NCBI GenBank assembly: GCA_020073005.1
Contig: JAIQFX010000049.1
Coordinates: 1 to 52,499 of the forward strand
Length of the DNA stretch: 52,499 nt
Origin: Terriglobia bacterium
GTDB taxonomy: Bacteria > Acidobacteriota > Vicinamibacteria > Vicinamibacterales > CAVVIG01
Direction: 5' to 3'
A program made the translations under genes and the position numbers. Shown one piece after another: positions 30,192-37,618 of this stretch; the stretch's first letter is position 1; every line of letters starts with the position of its first letter. The notes beneath the pieces were generated by a model that was not told the origin of the DNA, made no database searches, and worked only from the letters and a program-made list of their open reading frames with translations.

Positions 30192-30866
30192 TTAGCGCAG
30201 GAGGAGCGGATCGGCCACGCCCGCCTCGCTGAACCCTCTGGCGCGCAGCACGCAGCTGTCGCAGCGGCGGCAGGGGCGGCCCTGAGCATCCGGCGCGTAG
30301 CAGCTGTGCGTGAGGCCGTAGTCGAGGCCCAGCGCGATCCCGCGCGTGATGATCTCGGCCTTGCTCAGCGCGATGAGCGGCGTGTGGACGCGGAACGTCG
30401 CGCCTTCGACGCCGGCGCGCGTCGCCAGATTGGCCAGCTGCTCGAAGGCGCGGACGAATTCCGGACGGCAGTCGGGATAGCCCGAGTAGTCGAGCGCGTT
30501 GACGCCGATCACGAGGTCGGTCGCGCCGAGGACTTCCGCCCACCCCAGCGCGAGCGAGAGAAAGATCGTGTTGCGCGCGGGCACGTACGTCGACGGAATG
30601 TCGGCGGCGCCGAGATCGCGATCGCGCGGCACCGGCATGTCGGACGTCAGCGACGATCCGCCGATGGCGCGCAGGTCCAGGTTCAGCTCGAGATGCCGCG
30701 TGACGCCGAGGGCGGCCGCGACCGCGCGCGCGGACTCGATCTCGCGGGCGTGGCGCTGACCGTAGTGGATCGTGAGCGCGTGCAGCGCGAAGCCGTCGGC
30801 GCGGGCGATCGCGGCGGCTGTGTACGAGTCAAGTCCTCCGCTCAGCAGAACGACGCAGTTCGCCAA
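30192..30866 (-). CDS. queC: 7-cyano-7-deazaguanine synthase
   Basis: Converts CDG to preQ0 with ATP and ammonia in queuosine synthesis. PP-loop SGGLDS (about 9-14), TIHYGQRH, and four zinc Cys near the C-terminus ([19 protein letters not shown]) are present. The only possible start is TTG 30866, directly beside an octamer array; a stop codon lies just upstream in frame. The array's GGGTGA may substitute for the ribosome-binding site. It is adjacent to queE, another enzyme of the pathway, and queA lies at 48093. Confidence 0.94.
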
Positions 30867-30919: not shown

Positions 30920-31561
30920 TCACACGCCTCTCGTCGTCGGTGTCCAGATGTACTTGTGGAGCTGCAGCTGCAGGCGAACCGGCAGATGATCCGCGAGGAT
31001 CCATTCCGACAGCGTCCGCGGATCGAGGACGCCGTGCACGGGCGAGATCAGCACGGCCGCCGTCCGCGACGCGAGCGCGTGGCGCGCGATGACGTCGCGC
31101 GCGAACTCGTAGTCCGCGCGATCCTGGACGACGAACTTCACCTCGTCGTGCGGCGCCAGCCACTCGAGATTGCGCCAGTCGTTCTTGTCCGCTTCGCCGC
31201 TGGCGGGACATTTGACGTCGACGACCTTGACGACCGCGGCCGGCACTTCGTCGATCGGCCGGTGCCCGCCCGTCTCCAGCATGACCGTGTACCCGCGCGC
31301 GAGCAGCCGCTCCATCAGCGGATAGACATCGTCCTGCAGCAGCGGCTCGCCGCCCGTGATTTCGACAAGGCGGCATCCGTGCCGCTCGACCGCGGCGACG
31401 ACCTCGTCGACCGACATCTTCCCGCCTTCGTGGAACGCGTACGGCGTGTCGCACCACGTGCAGCGCAAGTCGCAGGCCGTGAGGCGCACGAACACGCACG
31501 GACGGCCGGCGCGAGTGGATTCGCCTTGAATCGAATGGAAGATTTCGTTGATGGTCAGCAA
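30920..31561 (-). CDS. queE: 7-carboxy-7-deazaguanine synthase (radical SAM)
   Basis: Makes CDG from CPH4 in queuosine synthesis. The radical SAM cluster motif is CDLRCTWC (C-x3-C-x2-C), following EIFHSIQGES, and the SAM-binding ITGGEPLLQ is intact. 213 residues is normal. The start is TTG 31561 because TAA is in frame just upstream. The gap to the divergent ArsC/Spx-like gene is only 19 bp, so promoters overlap the coding ends. Confidence 0.94.
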   Translation of the reverse strand: MLTINEIFHSIQGESTRAGRPCVFVRLTACDLRCTWCDTPYAFHEGGKMSVDEVVAAVERHGCRLVEITGGEPLLQDDVYPLMERLLARGYTVMLETGGHRPIDEVPAAVVKVVDVKCPASGEADKNDWRNLEWLAPHDEVKFVVQDRADYEFARDVIARHALASRTAAVLISPVHGVLDPRTLSEWILADHLPVRLQLQLHKYIWTPTTRGV

Positions 31562-31580
31562 TCTCCATTATCTTATCTCT

Positions 31581-31913
31581 ATGCCCAAACCGACCTTCTA
31601 CACCAAGCCCACGTGAACGACCTGCAAGAACGCCAGAAGTTTTCTGGACACAGCCGGCGTCGACGTGGAGCAAATTGACATCAACAAGGAACCGCCGTCG
31701 CGCGAGTTCCTCGAGAAGCACATCGAGGCCGATCGCTTCCTTGACTTCGTGAGCACGCGCAGTCCGGTGTTCAAGGAGCGGCCGCTCCCGAAGTCGAAGA
31801 AGGAGGCGATCGATCTGATGATGAAGAATCCGAATCTGATTCGCCGCCCGATCATCGTCAAGGGATCGAAGATCATCTTCGGATTCGACAAGGATCGCTA
31901 CAAGGCCCTCTAG
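31581..31913 (+). CDS. ArsC/Spx-like protein, putative selenoprotein with in-frame UGA at the active-site Cys
   Basis: The frame from ATG 31581 reads MPKPTFYTKPT, then TGA (31614-31616), then TTCKNARSFLDTAGV and stays open to TAG at 31911-31913, for 110 residues. The protein has the ArsC/Spx thioredoxin-like fold: DINKEPPSREFLE, then NPNLIRRPIIVKGSKIIFGF, with the RRP segment typical of the family. The TGA falls exactly where the family has its redox Cys (position 12, as in E. coli ArsC Cys12) and would give a U-x-x-C pair. A perfect 6-bp hairpin with a GUU loop lies 16 nt downstream, in the position of a bacterial SECIS. Selenocysteine is the favoured reading; the rival is a TGC-to-TGA nonsense change or a base error. 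No selA, selB or selC is in the window. There is no strong Shine-Dalgarno. Confidence 0.7.
31633..31647 (+). promoter_or_regulatory. Putative bacterial SECIS hairpin
   Basis: CCAGAA-GTT-TTCTGG forms a perfect 6-bp stem with a 3-nt loop whose first base is G. There are 16 nt between the TGA and the stem and 22 nt between the TGA and the loop G. This meets the published outline for bacterial SECIS elements (loop 16-37 nt from the UGA, G among its first two bases). Confidence 0.6.
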
Positions 31914-31925
31914 GGCGGGTGGGGA

Positions 31926-32930
31926 ATGTCTGAGTTGCGCATCGGCACGTCGGGATGGCACTACCCGTCGGGACACGGGACGTGGAATGGTGTGTTCTAT
32001 CCGCCGGCGCGCCGGCGGCCCAGGGGCTTCGACGAGCTCGCGTTCTACGCCGAGCATTTCAACACCGTCGAGGTGAACTCGACCTTCTACGGACAGCCGC
32101 GCGCCGACGTGTGCCGGAAATGGGCCGACCGCACGCCGGCAGGCTTCGAGTTCTCCGTCAAGCTCTACCAGAAGTTCACGCACCCGAAGATGTTCGGCGA
32201 GCGGTTGGCGGGCACGCTGCCGCCGGATGCGCGCGACGCGGAGCGCGTGCGCGCGCTCGCGCGGCCGACCGCGTCGGATCTCGACGAGTTCACGCGCGGC
32301 ATCGATCCGCTCGCGTCGGCCGGCAAGCTCGGCGCGCTGCTCGCGCAGTTCCCGCCGAGCTTCAAGGACGACCCGGCGTCGCGCGAGTACCTCGCGCACC
32401 TGATCCACGCGCTCGGCGGTTACACGATCGCCGTGGAACTGCGCCACCGCAGCTGGAGCGACGACGTCGGCGGCACGCTCGCGCTGCTGAACGGATTCGG
32501 CGCGGCGTGGGTCCAGATCGACGAGCCGAAGTTCCGCTTCTCCATCCGCCAGAACCTTCTTCCCAATGTCACCGGGTGCTACTACATGCGGCTGCATGGA
32601 CGGAATGCCGCGAAGTGGTGGAGCCACGAGAAGGCGGAGGAACGCTACGACTATCTGTATTCCGCCGACGAGGTGAAGGAGTTTTCGGAAACGGCCGCGG
32701 CGGCGAAGGAACTGGTGAAGACACTCTATCTGTACACGAACAATCACTTCTCCGCGAAGGCGATCGCGAACGCGGCGATGATCAAGCAGCAGCTCGGCGA
32801 GCCGATCGACGGCGAGTACCCGCCGGAGTTCCTGGACAAGTACCCGGAGCTCCGTGAAGTCGTGAAGACCGGACTATCAGGGCTCGGTCACCAGCCACCA
32901 GCCACCAGCCACCGGTCATTACTCCCGTAG
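31926..32930 (+). CDS. DUF72-domain protein (YecE-like)
   Basis: A TIM-barrel protein of unknown function. It begins ELRIGTSGWHYPSGHGTWNG, with VEVNSTFYGQP, ELRHRSW and YMRLHGRN later, all family signatures. It starts 12 nt after the ArsC/Spx-like gene and may share a transcript with it. The last residues (GHQPPATSHRSLLP) are encoded by a CACCAGC heptamer array, and its 3' end overlaps the convergent cyclophilin gene by 12 bp. Confidence 0.9.
   Translation: MSELRIGTSGWHYPSGHGTWNGVFYPPARRRPRGFDELAFYAEHFNTVEVNSTFYGQPRADVCRKWADRTPAGFEFSVKLYQKFTHPKMFGERLAGTLPPDARDAERVRALARPTASDLDEFTRGIDPLASAGKLGALLAQFPPSFKDDPASREYLAHLIHALGGYTIAVELRHRSWSDDVGGTLALLNGFGAAWVQIDEPKFRFSIRQNLLPNVTGCYYMRLHGRNAAKWWSHEKAEERYDYLYSADEVKEFSETAAAAKELVKTLYLYTNNHFSAKAIANAAMIKQQLGEPIDGEYPPEFLDKYPELREVVKTGLSGLGHQPPATSHRSLLP
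32888..32915. repeat. Heptamer array CACCAGC at the DUF72 C-terminus
   Basis: Three to four units of CACCAGC, inside the last codons of the DUF72 gene, close to its overlap with the convergent cyclophilin gene. Confidence 0.75.
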
Positions 32931-35250: not shown

Positions 35251-35463
35251 TCAGTGTCCGTAGGACTGGCAGTACCCGCAGTGATTGCAGCGCACCGCCG
35301 GTTCGATGAGGCACGCGCCATCACCGTCGCCGCCCTGCGCGAGCGTGAACCGCAGGTGGCTGATTTGCGCGCGGAACGCGGCTGCGGGCTCGGGAGGCAG
35401 GTGCCGCGCAATCGACGCGCGGATCATGTCGCGCAGTTCCTGTTCGTTCACGTCCGCCATCAC
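35251..35463 (-). CDS. 70-residue Cys-rich protein of the microcompartment locus
   Basis: Not recognised. The ATG overlaps the stop of a BMC-P gene (ATGA). An N-terminal amphipathic helix (ELRDMIRASIARHL, about 9-22) resembles the short helices that target cargo to microcompartment shells. A Pro-rich hinge and a middle strand region follow, and the C-terminus carries CNHCGYC then GH, enough for a small metal or cluster site. It may be a cargo adaptor or an electron-transfer peptide; both are guesses. Confidence 0.7.
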   Translation of the reverse strand: MMADVNEQELRDMIRASIARHLPPEPAAAFRAQISHLRFTLAQGGDGDGACLIEPAVRCNHCGYCQSYGH

Positions 35464-35735
35464 GCCACCGCCATGTCGACCGAATCGATGATGCCGATGA
35501 TCGCCGCGTCGACCGGCGCGGCCTTCCTGCCGAGCGCCTCGCCCGCCGCGCGCCCCTCGAGCACGATCAGCACTTTTTCGTGGACACCCGCGCCAACGCC
35601 GTCGACCGCGAGCAGCGCGACGCCGCGCGGCGTGTCGTCGATGTTCAGCGGCTGGACGAGCAGCAGCTTCGCGCCCTCGAACTTGCGGTGCTTCTGCGTC
35701 GACACAACGGTCCCGATGACCCTGGCAATCTGCAT
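35460..35735 (-). CDS. BMC-P shell vertex protein (EutN/CcmL type), third copy
   Basis: A pentameric pfam03319 protein that caps shell vertices. It has the family pattern MQIARVIGTVVSTQKH...GAKLLLVQPL...VDGVGAGVHEKVLIVLEG...VDAAIIGIIDSVD. 91 residues. It is the last of three BMC-P genes in the locus and overlaps the 70-residue gene. Confidence 0.93.
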   Translation of the reverse strand: MQIARVIGTVVSTQKHRKFEGAKLLLVQPLNIDDTPRGVALLAVDGVGAGVHEKVLIVLEGRAAGEALGRKAAPVDAAIIGIIDSVDMAVA

Positions 35736-35741
35736 CGTTCT

Positions 35742-35826
35742 GAATTTGAGGAGGTCAGGATTTGAGGAAGTGAGGAAGTGATTTCAGATCCTCAAATTCT
35801 CACATTCTCACCTCCTCACCTCTCAA
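35742..35826. repeat. Inverted heptamer array (GAGGAAGT / CTCACATT)
   Basis: Left arm 35742-35780 (GAGGAAGTGAGGAAGTG type) and right arm 35788-35826 (CTCAAATTCTCACATTCTC type) lie between two BMC-P genes. Confidence 0.75.
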
Positions 35827-36085
35827 CATCCCAGTGATCGACGATGCCGACGATGCCGGCGTCGACCGGCGGCTCCGCCGGATGGAACGGAAAGCTCGCT
35901 TCTTTGCCGCGGACGAAGAACACTTCCTCGCCGACGCCGGCGCCGACGGCGTCGACGGCGACCAGCGGCCGTCCTGCCGGCTCGCGCTCTGGCGTCAGCG
36001 GCTGGACGACGAGCAGCTTGATGCCCGCGAGGTTCTCGTCCTTGCGCGTGACGACGACGTCGCCGATGACTCTGGCGAGATGCAT
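35816..36085 (-). CDS. BMC-P shell vertex protein (EutN/CcmL type), second copy
   Basis: 89 residues from ATG 36085: MHLARVIGDVVVTRKDENL, LLVVQPLTPE, VDAVGAGVGEEVFFV, VDAGIVGIVDHWDV. Its start overlaps the previous BMC-P stop by one base (TAATG). The loop KEASFPFHPAEPP is longer than in the neighbours and may line a different vertex face. Confidence 0.93.
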   Translation of the reverse strand: MHLARVIGDVVVTRKDENLAGIKLLVVQPLTPEREPAGRPLVAVDAVGAGVGEEVFFVRGKEASFPFHPAEPPVDAGIVGIVDHWDVER

Positions 36086-36354
36086 TACTCGTTCATCTCG
36101 ATCGCGTCGATGACGCCGACGATGGCGGCGTCGACGGGACACTCCTTCAGGCCCGCGGCCATGCGCGCGGAGCTGCCGCTGACGATGAGCACGGTTTCGC
36201 CGACGCCGGCCTGCACAGTGTCGACGGCGACGAGATGACTGCCTTCGGCTTTGCCACGAGGATCGATTGGACGGACGACGAGCAGCTTGCTGCTGACGAG
36301 CCGCGGATCCTTGCGCGTCGCGACGACGGTCCCGACGACTTTGGCGAGGAGCAA
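36085..36354 (-). CDS. BMC-P shell vertex protein (EutN/CcmL type), first copy
   Basis: 89 residues from TTG 36354: LLAKVVGTVVATRKDPRL, KLLVVRPIDPRG, VDTVQAGVGETVLIVSGSSAR, VDAAIVGVIDAIEM. It follows the BMC-H gene by 6 nt. Three BMC-P paralogues in one small locus match fucose/rhamnose-type microcompartments. Confidence 0.93.
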   Translation of the reverse strand: MLLAKVVGTVVATRKDPRLVSSKLLVVRPIDPRGKAEGSHLVAVDTVQAGVGETVLIVSGSSARMAAGLKECPVDAAIVGVIDAIEMNE

Positions 36355-36360
36355 AAGTTG

Positions 36361-36654
36361 TTACGCCTTCGAGGTCGTGGCTTTCCCGATCGGCAGCGCG
36401 TCCTCGAGGTTCGCGTGCGGACGCGGGATGACGTGCACCGACACGAGCTCGCCGACCCGGCGGGCCGCCGCGGCGCCGGCGTCGGTTGCGGCCTTCACGG
36501 CCGCGACGTCGCCACGCACGATCGCCGTCACGTAGCCCGCGCCGATCTTTTCCCAGCCGACCAGCGTGACCTTCGCCGCCTTGACCATCGCGTCGGCGGC
36601 CTCGATCATCGCGACCAGGCCCTTGGTTTCGACCATTCCTAACGCCTCGCCCAT
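36361..36654 (-). CDS. BMC-H shell hexamer protein
   Basis: A pfam00936 protein that tiles the shell facets. The start is ATG 36654 with AAGGAG 8 nt upstream; the longer frame to 36732 would translate a spacer array. [48 protein letters not shown] and [12 protein letters not shown] are family signatures. 97 residues. It is the only BMC-H in the window. Confidence 0.95.
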
Positions 36655-36669
36655 GGGGCTCTCCTTTAA

Positions 36670-36751
36670 TTGCGGATTGAGGATTGCGGAGTGCGGAGTG
36701 AAGAACTCGGTCTCCCGTTCCGCATTCCGCATTCCTCAGTCCGCATTACCG
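36670..36751. repeat. Inverted heptamer array (GCGGAGT / ATTCCGC)
   Basis: Left arm 36670-36702 has TGCGGAGTGCGGAGTG words and right arm 36717-36751 the CCGCATTCCGCATTC complement. It lies between the aldolase stop and the BMC-H start, where a hairpin could tune expression of shell genes. Confidence 0.75.
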
Positions 36752-37618
36752 CAGGCTCTTTACCGCATCTTCGATCAATGCCGACAACTCGCGGTATGTT
36801 AACCGAATTTCGCCCTCGTCATTGTGTTGCGCGGCCTCGACGGCCCGCCGGACGGCGTTGGGCACCAGGCGCGCGCCGTCGCCCGCGGGCGCCTGCACGA
36901 CCTGACACGTCGCGGGATCGGTGAGATCGCCTGCCCCGAGCTCCGTCGAGGGGTCGGCGCAAATCGGCGCCGGAGCCGTGATGCCATACGTCCCGCGCAG
37001 GTCCTGCAGCCGCAGGACCTCGTCGCGCGAGATCAGGTTCTCGCGGCCGAGCAGCCGCGCGACCAGACTGATCTTCGCGAAGTGCTCGATGGTCTCCATC
37101 TTGTAGTACGCGGCGTAGAGGTCGACGCCGACGGTCAGCGCGCCGTGATTGGCCAGCAGCATGCCGTCGTGCGCCTTGATGTACTTGCGCACGGCGTCGG
37201 GCAGCTCGCGCGTCGACGGCGTCGCGTACTCGGCGATCGGAATGCTGCCGAGCGTCGTGAGCACTTCGGCGAGCACCGCGCGGTCGAGCGGAATGCCCGC
37301 GACCGCGAAGCCCGTCGCCGTCGGCGGATGCGCGTGCACGACCGCCTGCACGTCCGGGCGCTGCCGGTAGACCTCGAGGTGCATCAGCATCTCGGACGAA
37401 GGATCGCGATCGCCCTGCAGCTTCGTGCCGTCGAGATCGGTGATGCACATCATGTCCGGCGTCATGAAGCCCTTGCACACGCTCTTGGGCGTCATGACGA
37501 GCCGATCGGATCCGAGCCGCACGCTGATGTTGCCGTCGTTCGACGCCGTGTACCCGCGCGCGTACATGCGGCGGCCGACTTCGACGATGTCGGCGCGGAG
37601 CGCAGACTCGGGCGTCAT
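36746..37618 (-). CDS. Class II aldolase, L-fuculose-phosphate type
   Basis: A zinc aldolase that cleaves fuculose- or rhamnulose-type 1-phosphates to DHAP and lactaldehyde. The catalytic Glu is in PSSEMLMH, zinc His in VVHAHPP and the third in LLANHGAL. The length of 290 residues exceeds E. coli FucA, with a C-terminal extension (about 215-290) containing the Pro-rich APAPICADPSTELG and a final helix EIRLTYRELSALIEDAVKSL that could be an encapsulation helix. It heads the microcompartment genes and overlaps the YHS-like gene (ATGA). Confidence 0.88.
   Translation of the reverse strand: MTPESALRADIVEVGRRMYARGYTASNDGNISVRLGSDRLVMTPKSVCKGFMTPDMMCITDLDGTKLQGDRDPSSEMLMHLEVYRQRPDVQAVVHAHPPTATGFAVAGIPLDRAVLAEVLTTLGSIPIAEYATPSTRELPDAVRKYIKAHDGMLLANHGALTVGVDLYAAYYKMETIEHFAKISLVARLLGRENLISRDEVLRLQDLRGTYGITAPAPICADPSTELGAGDLTDPATCQVVQAPAGDGARLVPNAVRRAVEAAQHNDEGEIRLTYRELSALIEDAVKSLR

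What the first reader, a model, noticed from the sequence alone, without database searches (positions are those of the whole stretch)
31581..31913. Candidate selenoprotein: ArsC/Spx-like gene with UGA exactly at the catalytic Cys and a SECIS-like hairpin
Seen: an open frame of 110 codons broken only by one TGA, which replaces the N-terminal redox Cys and leaves the second Cys (U-x-x-C); the downstream sequence is intact, and a perfect 6-bp stem with a G-first loop follows 16 nt after the TGA. Known: bacterial SECIS elements lie just 3' of the UGA with these spacings, and Sec commonly replaces catalytic Cys in thioredoxin-fold oxidoreductases. Inference: this is a Sec-containing ArsC-like protein. 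A chance nonsense change would hit this one codon out of 110 rarely, and the hairpin would then be a coincidence.
Basis: partly seen in the sequence, partly recalled or inferred. Interest (0 to 1): 0.9.

Follow-up and report, generated by a model that had tools for sequence, protein, structure and literature searches.

The report
Selenoprotein of ArsC/Spx fold, UGA-encoded
A small bacterial redox protein very probably carries the rare amino acid selenocysteine at its active site, written as a codon that normally means stop; relatives conserve that codon and the RNA signal for reading it, but selenocysteine proteins of this general type were already known.

Summary
Window 31581-31913 (+) is a 110-codon ArsC/Spx-fold gene whose only internal stop is TGA at codon 12 (31614-31616), at the catalytic Cys of a CxxC motif (here U-T-T-C). 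The genome holds tRNA-Sec, SelA, SelB and a SelD that itself contains a UGA. All 39 orthologues read (own gene included; 9 families of one order, Acidobacteria) have TGA at this codon. All 39 have the loop G of the hairpin; 30 form all six stem pairs, 8 five, 1 four. One pair is A-U in 26 and G-C in 13. The stem's Arg codon is AGA/AGG in 39 of 39, against 40 of 391 other Arg codons in these genes. One syntenic orthologue has TGC and lacks both the AGR codon and this hairpin, as expected of a natural Sec/Cys exchange. The gene lies divergent to queE/queC, just upstream of DUF72. Most likely it makes a Sec-dependent thiol-disulfide oxidoreductase (inferred); arsenate reduction or Spx-type RNA-polymerase binding is less likely. 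Sec-containing ArsC-like proteins (UxxS, UxxC) are in print; none of the 28 UGA clade members scanned matches NCBIfam's ArsC selenoprotein model. Verdict: well-supported new member of a known kind.

The parts
31581..31913 (+). UGA-containing ArsC/Spx-fold gene (110 codons plus TAG stop)
31614..31616 (+). TGA codon 12, read as selenocysteine (U-T-T-C motif)
   Evidence: TGA in 39 of 39 orthologues
31623..31625 (+). TGC codon 15, probable resolving Cys of U-T-T-C
   Evidence: Cys (TGC 37, TGT 2) in 39 of 39
31633..31647 (+). SECIS-like hairpin: stem 31633-31638 with 31642-31647, loop GUU 31639-31641
31926..32930 (+). DUF72 gene, 12 nt downstream, probable operon partner
   Evidence: (PF01904 E 4.9e-56)
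30920..31561 (-). queE-like radical SAM gene, divergent, its longest ORF start 19 nt from the ATG; conserved neighbour
   Evidence: the name QueE is recalled; one search shows Radical_SAM
30192..30866 (-). queC gene, conserved neighbour
   Evidence: (PF06508 E 1.6e-73)

Best explanation
31581-31913 is a true bacterial selenoprotein gene. Ribosomes read the UGA at codon 12 as selenocysteine with SelB, Sec-tRNA-Sec and the hairpin 16 nt downstream (supported by conservation and machinery; not shown biochemically). The product is a 110-residue protein of the ArsC/YffB/Spx fold. Its selenol (U12) attacks a disulfide or another oxidised substrate, and C15 resolves the intermediate as a selenenylsulfide that a thioredoxin or glutathione system recycles (inferred from motif and fold). 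Because the third Arg of the ArsC triad and the Gly52 equivalent of Spx are not seen, a general thiol-disulfide reductase, as proposed for YffB, is more likely than an arsenate reductase or an RNA-polymerase regulator (inferred). It is probably co-transcribed with the DUF72 gene (inferred). The confidence given is for the Sec reading; for the thiol-disulfide function I would say about 0.7, given Sec.
For: Machinery: tRNA-Sec 60.4 bits over cut-off, called tRNA-SeC (tca) by ARAGORN; SelB 347.6, SelA 541, SelD 349.4 bits, all over cut-off, SelD with one in-frame TGA. TGA at the same codon in 39 of 39. Stem cells paired in 224 of 233 (96.1%), at most 62.7% when the partner is slid by 1-3 columns; pair 5 A-U in 26, G-C in 13. 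Stem Arg codon AGA/AGG 39 of 39 against 40 of 391 elsewhere, Fisher p 1.3e-33, rows not independent. Coding frame on both sides of the UGA: third-position differences from the window gene are 2.5 times the mean of first and second positions before the UGA, 2.1 times after the stem. Syntenic Cys orthologue L059 lacks the AGR codon and this hairpin. Of 40 genomes with the UGA gene, 38 have SelA over cut-off, G047 a SelA fragment, G067 SelB and tRNA-Sec over cut-off. Fold model pLDDT 94.2; top PDB matches are Spx, YffB and ArsC-related entries. Residue 52 is Gly in 1 of the 29 clade rows examined, Arg in the window; G52R disrupts the Spx-alphaCTD interaction (PMC2801614, passages).
Against: No protein, 75Se or mass-spectrometry evidence. 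The window hairpin alone is not very improbable (2.1% of synonymous recodings). A both-sided change is seen at one of six pairs; the number of such pairs (1) and of further pair types (1, shuffles 3.0) does not exceed shuffles, and the covariation score of a structure slid by -1 is as high (0.154 against 0.152), though that slid structure pairs in 62.7% only. The sixth pair is unpaired in 7 of 38 readable rows. L034 loses two pairs. L065 loses the outer pair and has a further in-frame TAG. G047 has neither SelB nor tRNA-Sec over cut-off (74% complete). Substrate and reductant are unknown; Arg60, which matters in ArsC and Spx, is kept (29 of 29 clade rows).
Confidence: 0.95

Rival explanations
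1. The selenoprotein reading holds, but the product is a classical arsenate reductase: U12 forms an adduct with arsenate that is reduced by glutaredoxin. (Odds given Sec.)
For: Pfam ArsC E 9.8e-15; Arg60 in 29 of 29 and Arg89 (Arg94-like) in 28 of 29 clade rows; UxxS arsenate-reductase selenoproteins are in print (PMC1088965, passages).
Against: TIGR00014 only 39 bits against a cut-off of 106.05. The aligned C-terminal columns 100-102 read F-G-F in most clade rows, without the third Arg; the triad is described as essential in PMC3169414 (passages). None of the 14 window proteins scanned is an arsenic-resistance protein by its Pfam match; two of them had no match.
Confidence: 0.12
2. It is an Spx/MgsR-type redox switch that binds RNA polymerase, with a Se-S bond instead of the disulfide. 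(Odds given Sec.)
For: Best NCBIfam family is TIGR01617, 84.5 bits over the cut-off of 75.05. The best-scoring solved sequences are Spx. Arg60 is kept.
Against: The Gly52 equivalent is Gly in 1 of 29 clade rows and Arg in the window (placed by the printed alignments); G52R disrupts the contact with alphaCTD (PMC2801614, passages). No docking was done.
Confidence: 0.1
3. Pseudogene, sequencing error, or an ordinary stop followed by a GTG-started 82-residue protein (31665-31913).
For: An 82-aa ORF from GTG at 31665 exists.
Against: TGA in 39 of 39 orthologues, coding constraint before the TGA, conserved hairpin, machinery present. A start at 31665 would remove the UxxC motif, the first strand and the first helix of the model.
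Confidence: 0.02
4. UGA is read as Trp or another standard residue, by a code change or a suppressor.
For: The frame is open if TGA is any residue.
Against: Standard-codon relatives have Cys here: L059 and the 7 Cys rows among the 13 non-clade rows of alignment A2 (the other 6 have UGA). tRNA-Sec (tca) and SelA/B/D are present.
Confidence: 0.01

Closest known systems
'Arsenate reductase 2' (cd03032, UxxC, 42 sequences), GOS metagenome 2008 (PMC2398784, passages)
   Same: ArsC-type selenoprotein with U-x-x-C; cd03032 is, from memory, the Spx subfamily of ArsC, which would fit the TIGR01617 match here
   Different: Its sequences could not be compared here; it may or may not include this clade
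ArsC_rel_Se_1 (NF041106), 'ArsC family (seleno)protein'
   Same: ArsC family, UxxC by PMC13188914; a true member occurs in the same order (L074, 98.4 bits over cut-off 85)
   Different: The window protein scores 32.4 against 85; none of the 42 rows of A2 (28 UGA clade rows, L059, 13 others) matches it at E 1e-18
Sec arsenate reductase of the UxxS type, Sargasso Sea 2005 (PMC1088965, passages; TIGR00014 in PMC13188914)
   Same: ArsC family, Sec at the N-terminal redox residue; UxxS relatives occur in the same order (L072, L073)
   Different: Window has UxxC; TIGR00014 39 bits against 106.05; third Arg not seen
Spx / MgsR regulators (TIGR01617; PDB 3l78, 1z3e)
   Same: Best sequence matches and top Foldseek E-values; Cys pair at the same place
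   Different: Sec instead of the first Cys; Gly52 equivalent not kept
YffB (PDB 1rw1, 2kok)
   Same: Same fold (TM-score by query length 0.82 and 0.72); proposed glutathione-dependent thiol reductase (PMC3169414, passages)
   Different: YffB of that paper has a single Cys; the window has UxxC

Membership tests
Bacterial selenoprotein gene | In-frame UGA at a position that is Cys in homologues | tested here: met
Bacterial selenoprotein gene | Sec machinery (tRNA-Sec, SelA, SelB, SelD) in the genome | tested here: met
Bacterial selenoprotein gene | bSECIS: G in the first two positions of a small apical loop, often followed by G or U, 16-37 nt from UGA (as stated in PMC13188914, passage) | tested here: met
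   loop GUU, 22 nt in the window; loop G in 39 of 39
Bacterial selenoprotein gene | Sec found in the protein | not testable with these tools
   needs 75Se labelling or mass spectrometry
ArsC family (Pfam PF03960) | Score over the gathering cut-off | tested here: met
   55.1 bits against 24
TIGR01617 arsC_related (Spx/MgsR) | Score over the curated cut-off | tested here: met
   84.5 against 75.05; but clade members L051 (64.7) and L062 (49.6) are below
Spx regulator | Gly52 for contact with RNA polymerase alphaCTD | tested here: not met
   Gly in 1 of 29 clade rows, Arg in the window
ArsC_rel_Se_1 (NF041106) | Score over the curated cut-off | tested here: not met
   32.4 against 85
Glutaredoxin-dependent arsenate reductase (TIGR00014) | Score over the curated cut-off | tested here: not met
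   39 against 106.05
Glutaredoxin-dependent arsenate reductase (TIGR00014) | Arg triad 60/94/107 (as named in PMC3169414) | tested here: inconclusive
   two of three kept; third not seen in the aligned C-terminal columns; the match to E. coli ArsC ends before that residue

The most novel reading that the evidence does not exclude
This is a separate, so far unmodelled selenoprotein family of the ArsC/Spx fold that was already Sec-containing in the ancestor of this clade in an order of Acidobacteria. It works as a Sec-dependent redox partner of the DUF72 protein encoded beside it, and its one syntenic Cys orthologue is a later Sec-to-Cys exchange that also dropped the SECIS.
Probability: 0.35. 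Interest if true: 0.5.

Novelty: new member of a known kind. Interest (0 to 1): 0.42.

Why it matters
It adds a selenoprotein clade, seen in 9 families of one order of Acidobacteria, that NCBIfam's ArsC selenoprotein model does not capture, so its members are probably annotated as broken or as shortened 'Spx/MgsR regulators' (inference; no annotation was looked up). The syntenic Sec/Cys pair with loss of the hairpin and of the AGR codon (L059 against the 39) is a clean natural case for asking what Sec gives an ArsC-fold enzyme and how a Sec/Cys exchange proceeds. The frequent neighbour DUF72, of unknown function, is a lead to a possible partner.

Tried and rejected
Pseudogene, sequencing error or short GTG-started gene: rejected on the conservation of TGA, frame and hairpin. 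UGA as Trp: rejected, Cys at this place in standard-codon relatives. Membership in NF041106 or TIGR00014: tested, not met. The hairpin as sole proof: not accepted; 2.1% of synonymous recodings of the window do as well, and two of 19 Cys relatives (L089, L095) score 17, above the window's 15, while one of 50 UGA rows scores only 7. The TGA-following sequence of SelD was folded but not compared further.

Papers. Ten searches of open-licence PMC: no title, abstract start or passage that I saw names an ArsC/Spx-type selenoprotein in Acidobacteria. I read no full text. PMC1794560 counts 4 selenoproteins of 3 families in Acidobacteria (passage) without naming them in what I saw; PMC12013277 (passages) lists one acidobacterium with 3 known and 0 new. 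So the absence is weak. One search (reference numbers in PMC9312934) found nothing.

Co-occurrence with SelA: Fisher p 4e-4, but the genomes are related, so the p-value is not independent evidence. G062, G019, G011 and G081, which hold only pieces of the gene, were counted among the genomes without it. Five partial SelA hits (G080, G047, G062, G145, G055) were classed as fragments by eye. In one search the DUF72 start was sought by a motif and is mechanical.

Full report
What is there. The frame at 31581-31913 (+) has 110 codons, one internal TGA at codon 12 (31614-31616) and a TAG stop. With TGA read as a residue it matches Pfam ArsC (E 9.8e-15) and NCBIfam TIGR01617 (84.5 bits, cut-off 75.05). 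The TGA replaces the first Cys of the CxxC motif (U-T-T-C). A 6-bp stem with loop GUU starts 16 nt after the TGA, and 22 nt lie between TGA and the loop G. This fits the bacterial SECIS model as stated in PMC13188914 (passage: G in one of the first two loop positions, often followed by G or U, 16-37 nt from UGA).

Machinery. The genome (G000, 179 contigs) has tRNA-Sec (60.4 bits, over cut-off; ARAGORN calls tRNA-SeC, tca), SelB 347.6 bits, SelA 541 bits and SelD 349.4 bits, the last with one in-frame TGA in the motif U-A-S-K; PMC13188914 gives UxxK for Sec-containing SelD. The four genes lie on four contigs. Contamination of the assembly is given as 4.63%, but SelA is over cut-off in 113 of 149 genomes of the group, own included.

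Orthologues. Of 149 genomes searched (own included), 62 matched at E 0.001. Forty (own included) have an orthologue at E 1e-30 or better with an in-frame TGA. G062, G019 and G011 hold pieces with the TGA, G081 a piece behind it, and G021 has the gene without a stop; the remaining matches are weaker (E 2e-16 and above), and five of those (G130, G101, G128, G063, G126) hold a TGA in other ArsC-like genes. I read 39 of the 40 (all but the partial G015): TGA at the same codon in 39 of 39, from 9 family codes.

SECIS evidence. Over the 39 rows 224 of 233 stem cells pair (96.1%); 30 rows form all six pairs, 8 five and 1 four; the loop begins with G in 39 of 39; 23 of 39 match CCAGRAGUUUYCUGG exactly. 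Pair 5 is A-U in 26 and G-C in 13; two pairs never vary; the sixth is unpaired in 7 of 38. Sliding the partner by 1-3 columns gives at most 62.7% paired, but the covariation score at slide -1 (0.154) equals that of the structure (0.152), and the counts of changed pairs and pair types do not exceed shuffles. The Arg codon within the stem is AGA or AGG in 39 of 39, other Arg codons of these genes in 40 of 391. Taken alone, the window hairpin is not rare (2.1% of 20,000 synonymous recodings score as well). By the same score 50 UGA rows exceed 19 Cys rows (medians 15 and 9, p 1.5e-7), as do the 11 UGA rows outside the clade (p 2e-5); two Cys rows score 17 and one UGA row 7, so the score alone does not separate them, and the rows are not independent.

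A natural Sec/Cys pair. L059 (G021) has TGC at the codon, the same neighbours (queE, queC, DUF72), CGG instead of AGR, and not this hairpin. In the tree it lies inside the UGA clade (40 rows, support 96/91; nearest join, to L025, 80/85), so a Sec-to-Cys change is the simpler reading; but its branch is long (0.77) and the tree has few columns for its rows. G021 still has SelA, SelB and tRNA-Sec over cut-off. Over all 69 rows the Sec/Cys label needs 7 changes, at least 3 forced by well-supported branches.

Co-occurrence. Of 40 genomes with the UGA gene, 38 have SelA over cut-off, G047 has a SelA fragment, and G067 has no SelA hit but SelB (335.3 bits) and tRNA-Sec (50 bits) over cut-off. Of the other 109 genomes, 79 have SelA whole or in pieces. 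G047 (74% complete) has neither SelB nor tRNA-Sec over cut-off.

Neighbours. queE or queC is found upstream in 34 of 39 loci and DUF72 downstream in 32 of 39, both in 29. Of the DUF72 misses L034 is a contig end, L024 and L064-L066 have another window neighbour (cyclophilin or HhH-GPD gene) in its place, and L048 and L050 have none of the six window neighbours sought within 1500 nt. In one search a DUF72-like motif was found behind the gene in 33 of 40 loci (39 and L059), 27 of them with a possible start between -35 and +25 nt of the stop: one operon is likely (inferred).

Function. The fold model (pLDDT 94.2, from 42 aligned rows with C for U) is nearest to Spx, YffB and ArsC-related entries. 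In the 29 clade rows of that alignment (28 UGA rows of 39, and L059) Arg60 is kept in 29, Arg89 in 28, and residue 52 is Gly in 1; the third ArsC Arg is not seen. G52R disrupts the Spx-alphaCTD interaction (PMC2801614, passages). The Arg triad is described as essential for ArsC, and YffB as a possible glutathione-dependent thiol reductase (PMC3169414, passages). I therefore take a Sec-dependent thiol-disulfide oxidoreductase as most likely, about 0.7 given that Sec is inserted; this step is inference. The stated confidence of 0.95 is for the selenoprotein reading.

Place among known things. Sec ArsC-like proteins are in print: UxxS in the Sargasso Sea set (PMC1088965, passages), ArsC-like proteins in two deltaproteobacteria in 2006 (PMC1794560, passages), 'Arsenate reductase 2', cd03032, UxxC, 42 sequences in GOS (PMC2398784, passages), the UxxS and UxxC forms in a 2022 review (PMC9312934, passages), and TIGR00014 and NF041106 in the 2026 review of 119 families and subfamilies (PMC13188914, section 7 parts 1-2 of 3 and passages). 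The window protein is under the cut-off of every (seleno)protein model that it hit in NCBIfam, and no row of A2 matches NF041106 at E 1e-18. The clade may be covered by the GOS group, which I could not compare. So: new member of a known kind.

Noticed in passing
window 35460-36732 (-), then 36746-37618 (-): Three EutN/CcmL shell-vertex genes and one BMC-domain shell gene in a row, followed by a class II aldolase gene: a likely bacterial microcompartment locus.
   Followed up: partly
window 31562-31580: Only 19 nt lie between the divergent starts (longest ORF of the queE-like gene); in L022-L026 and L028 an ATTAT stretch precedes the ATG and no clear ribosome-binding site is seen, which suggests leaderless mRNA.
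   Followed up: no
L074, L075, L076 and L072, L073: Two other kinds of UGA-containing ArsC-like genes occur in the same order: one of the NF041106 type (UTSC; L074 98.4 bits) and one UxxS type near TIGR00014 (L072 88.5 bits, below its cut-off of 106.05), each with its own 7-8 bp hairpin after the UGA.
   Followed up: partly
L077, L078, L080, L083, L084, L092: UGA-containing relatives outside the order, in four family codes (36-52% identity to the window protein); 4 of 6 read KPSUTSC, and their hairpins differ from the window's, least so in L083. Further rows hold a TGA whose place was not checked.
   Followed up: partly
L065 (G057): Orthologue with the UGA, a further in-frame TAG and the outer stem pair lost: perhaps a decaying copy.
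   Followed up: no
L050 (G005): UGA orthologue without the usual neighbours; it groups with sequences of family f2 (100/94) although G005 is of f1, and G021 of the same genus has the syntenic Cys copy: possible horizontal transfer.
   Followed up: no
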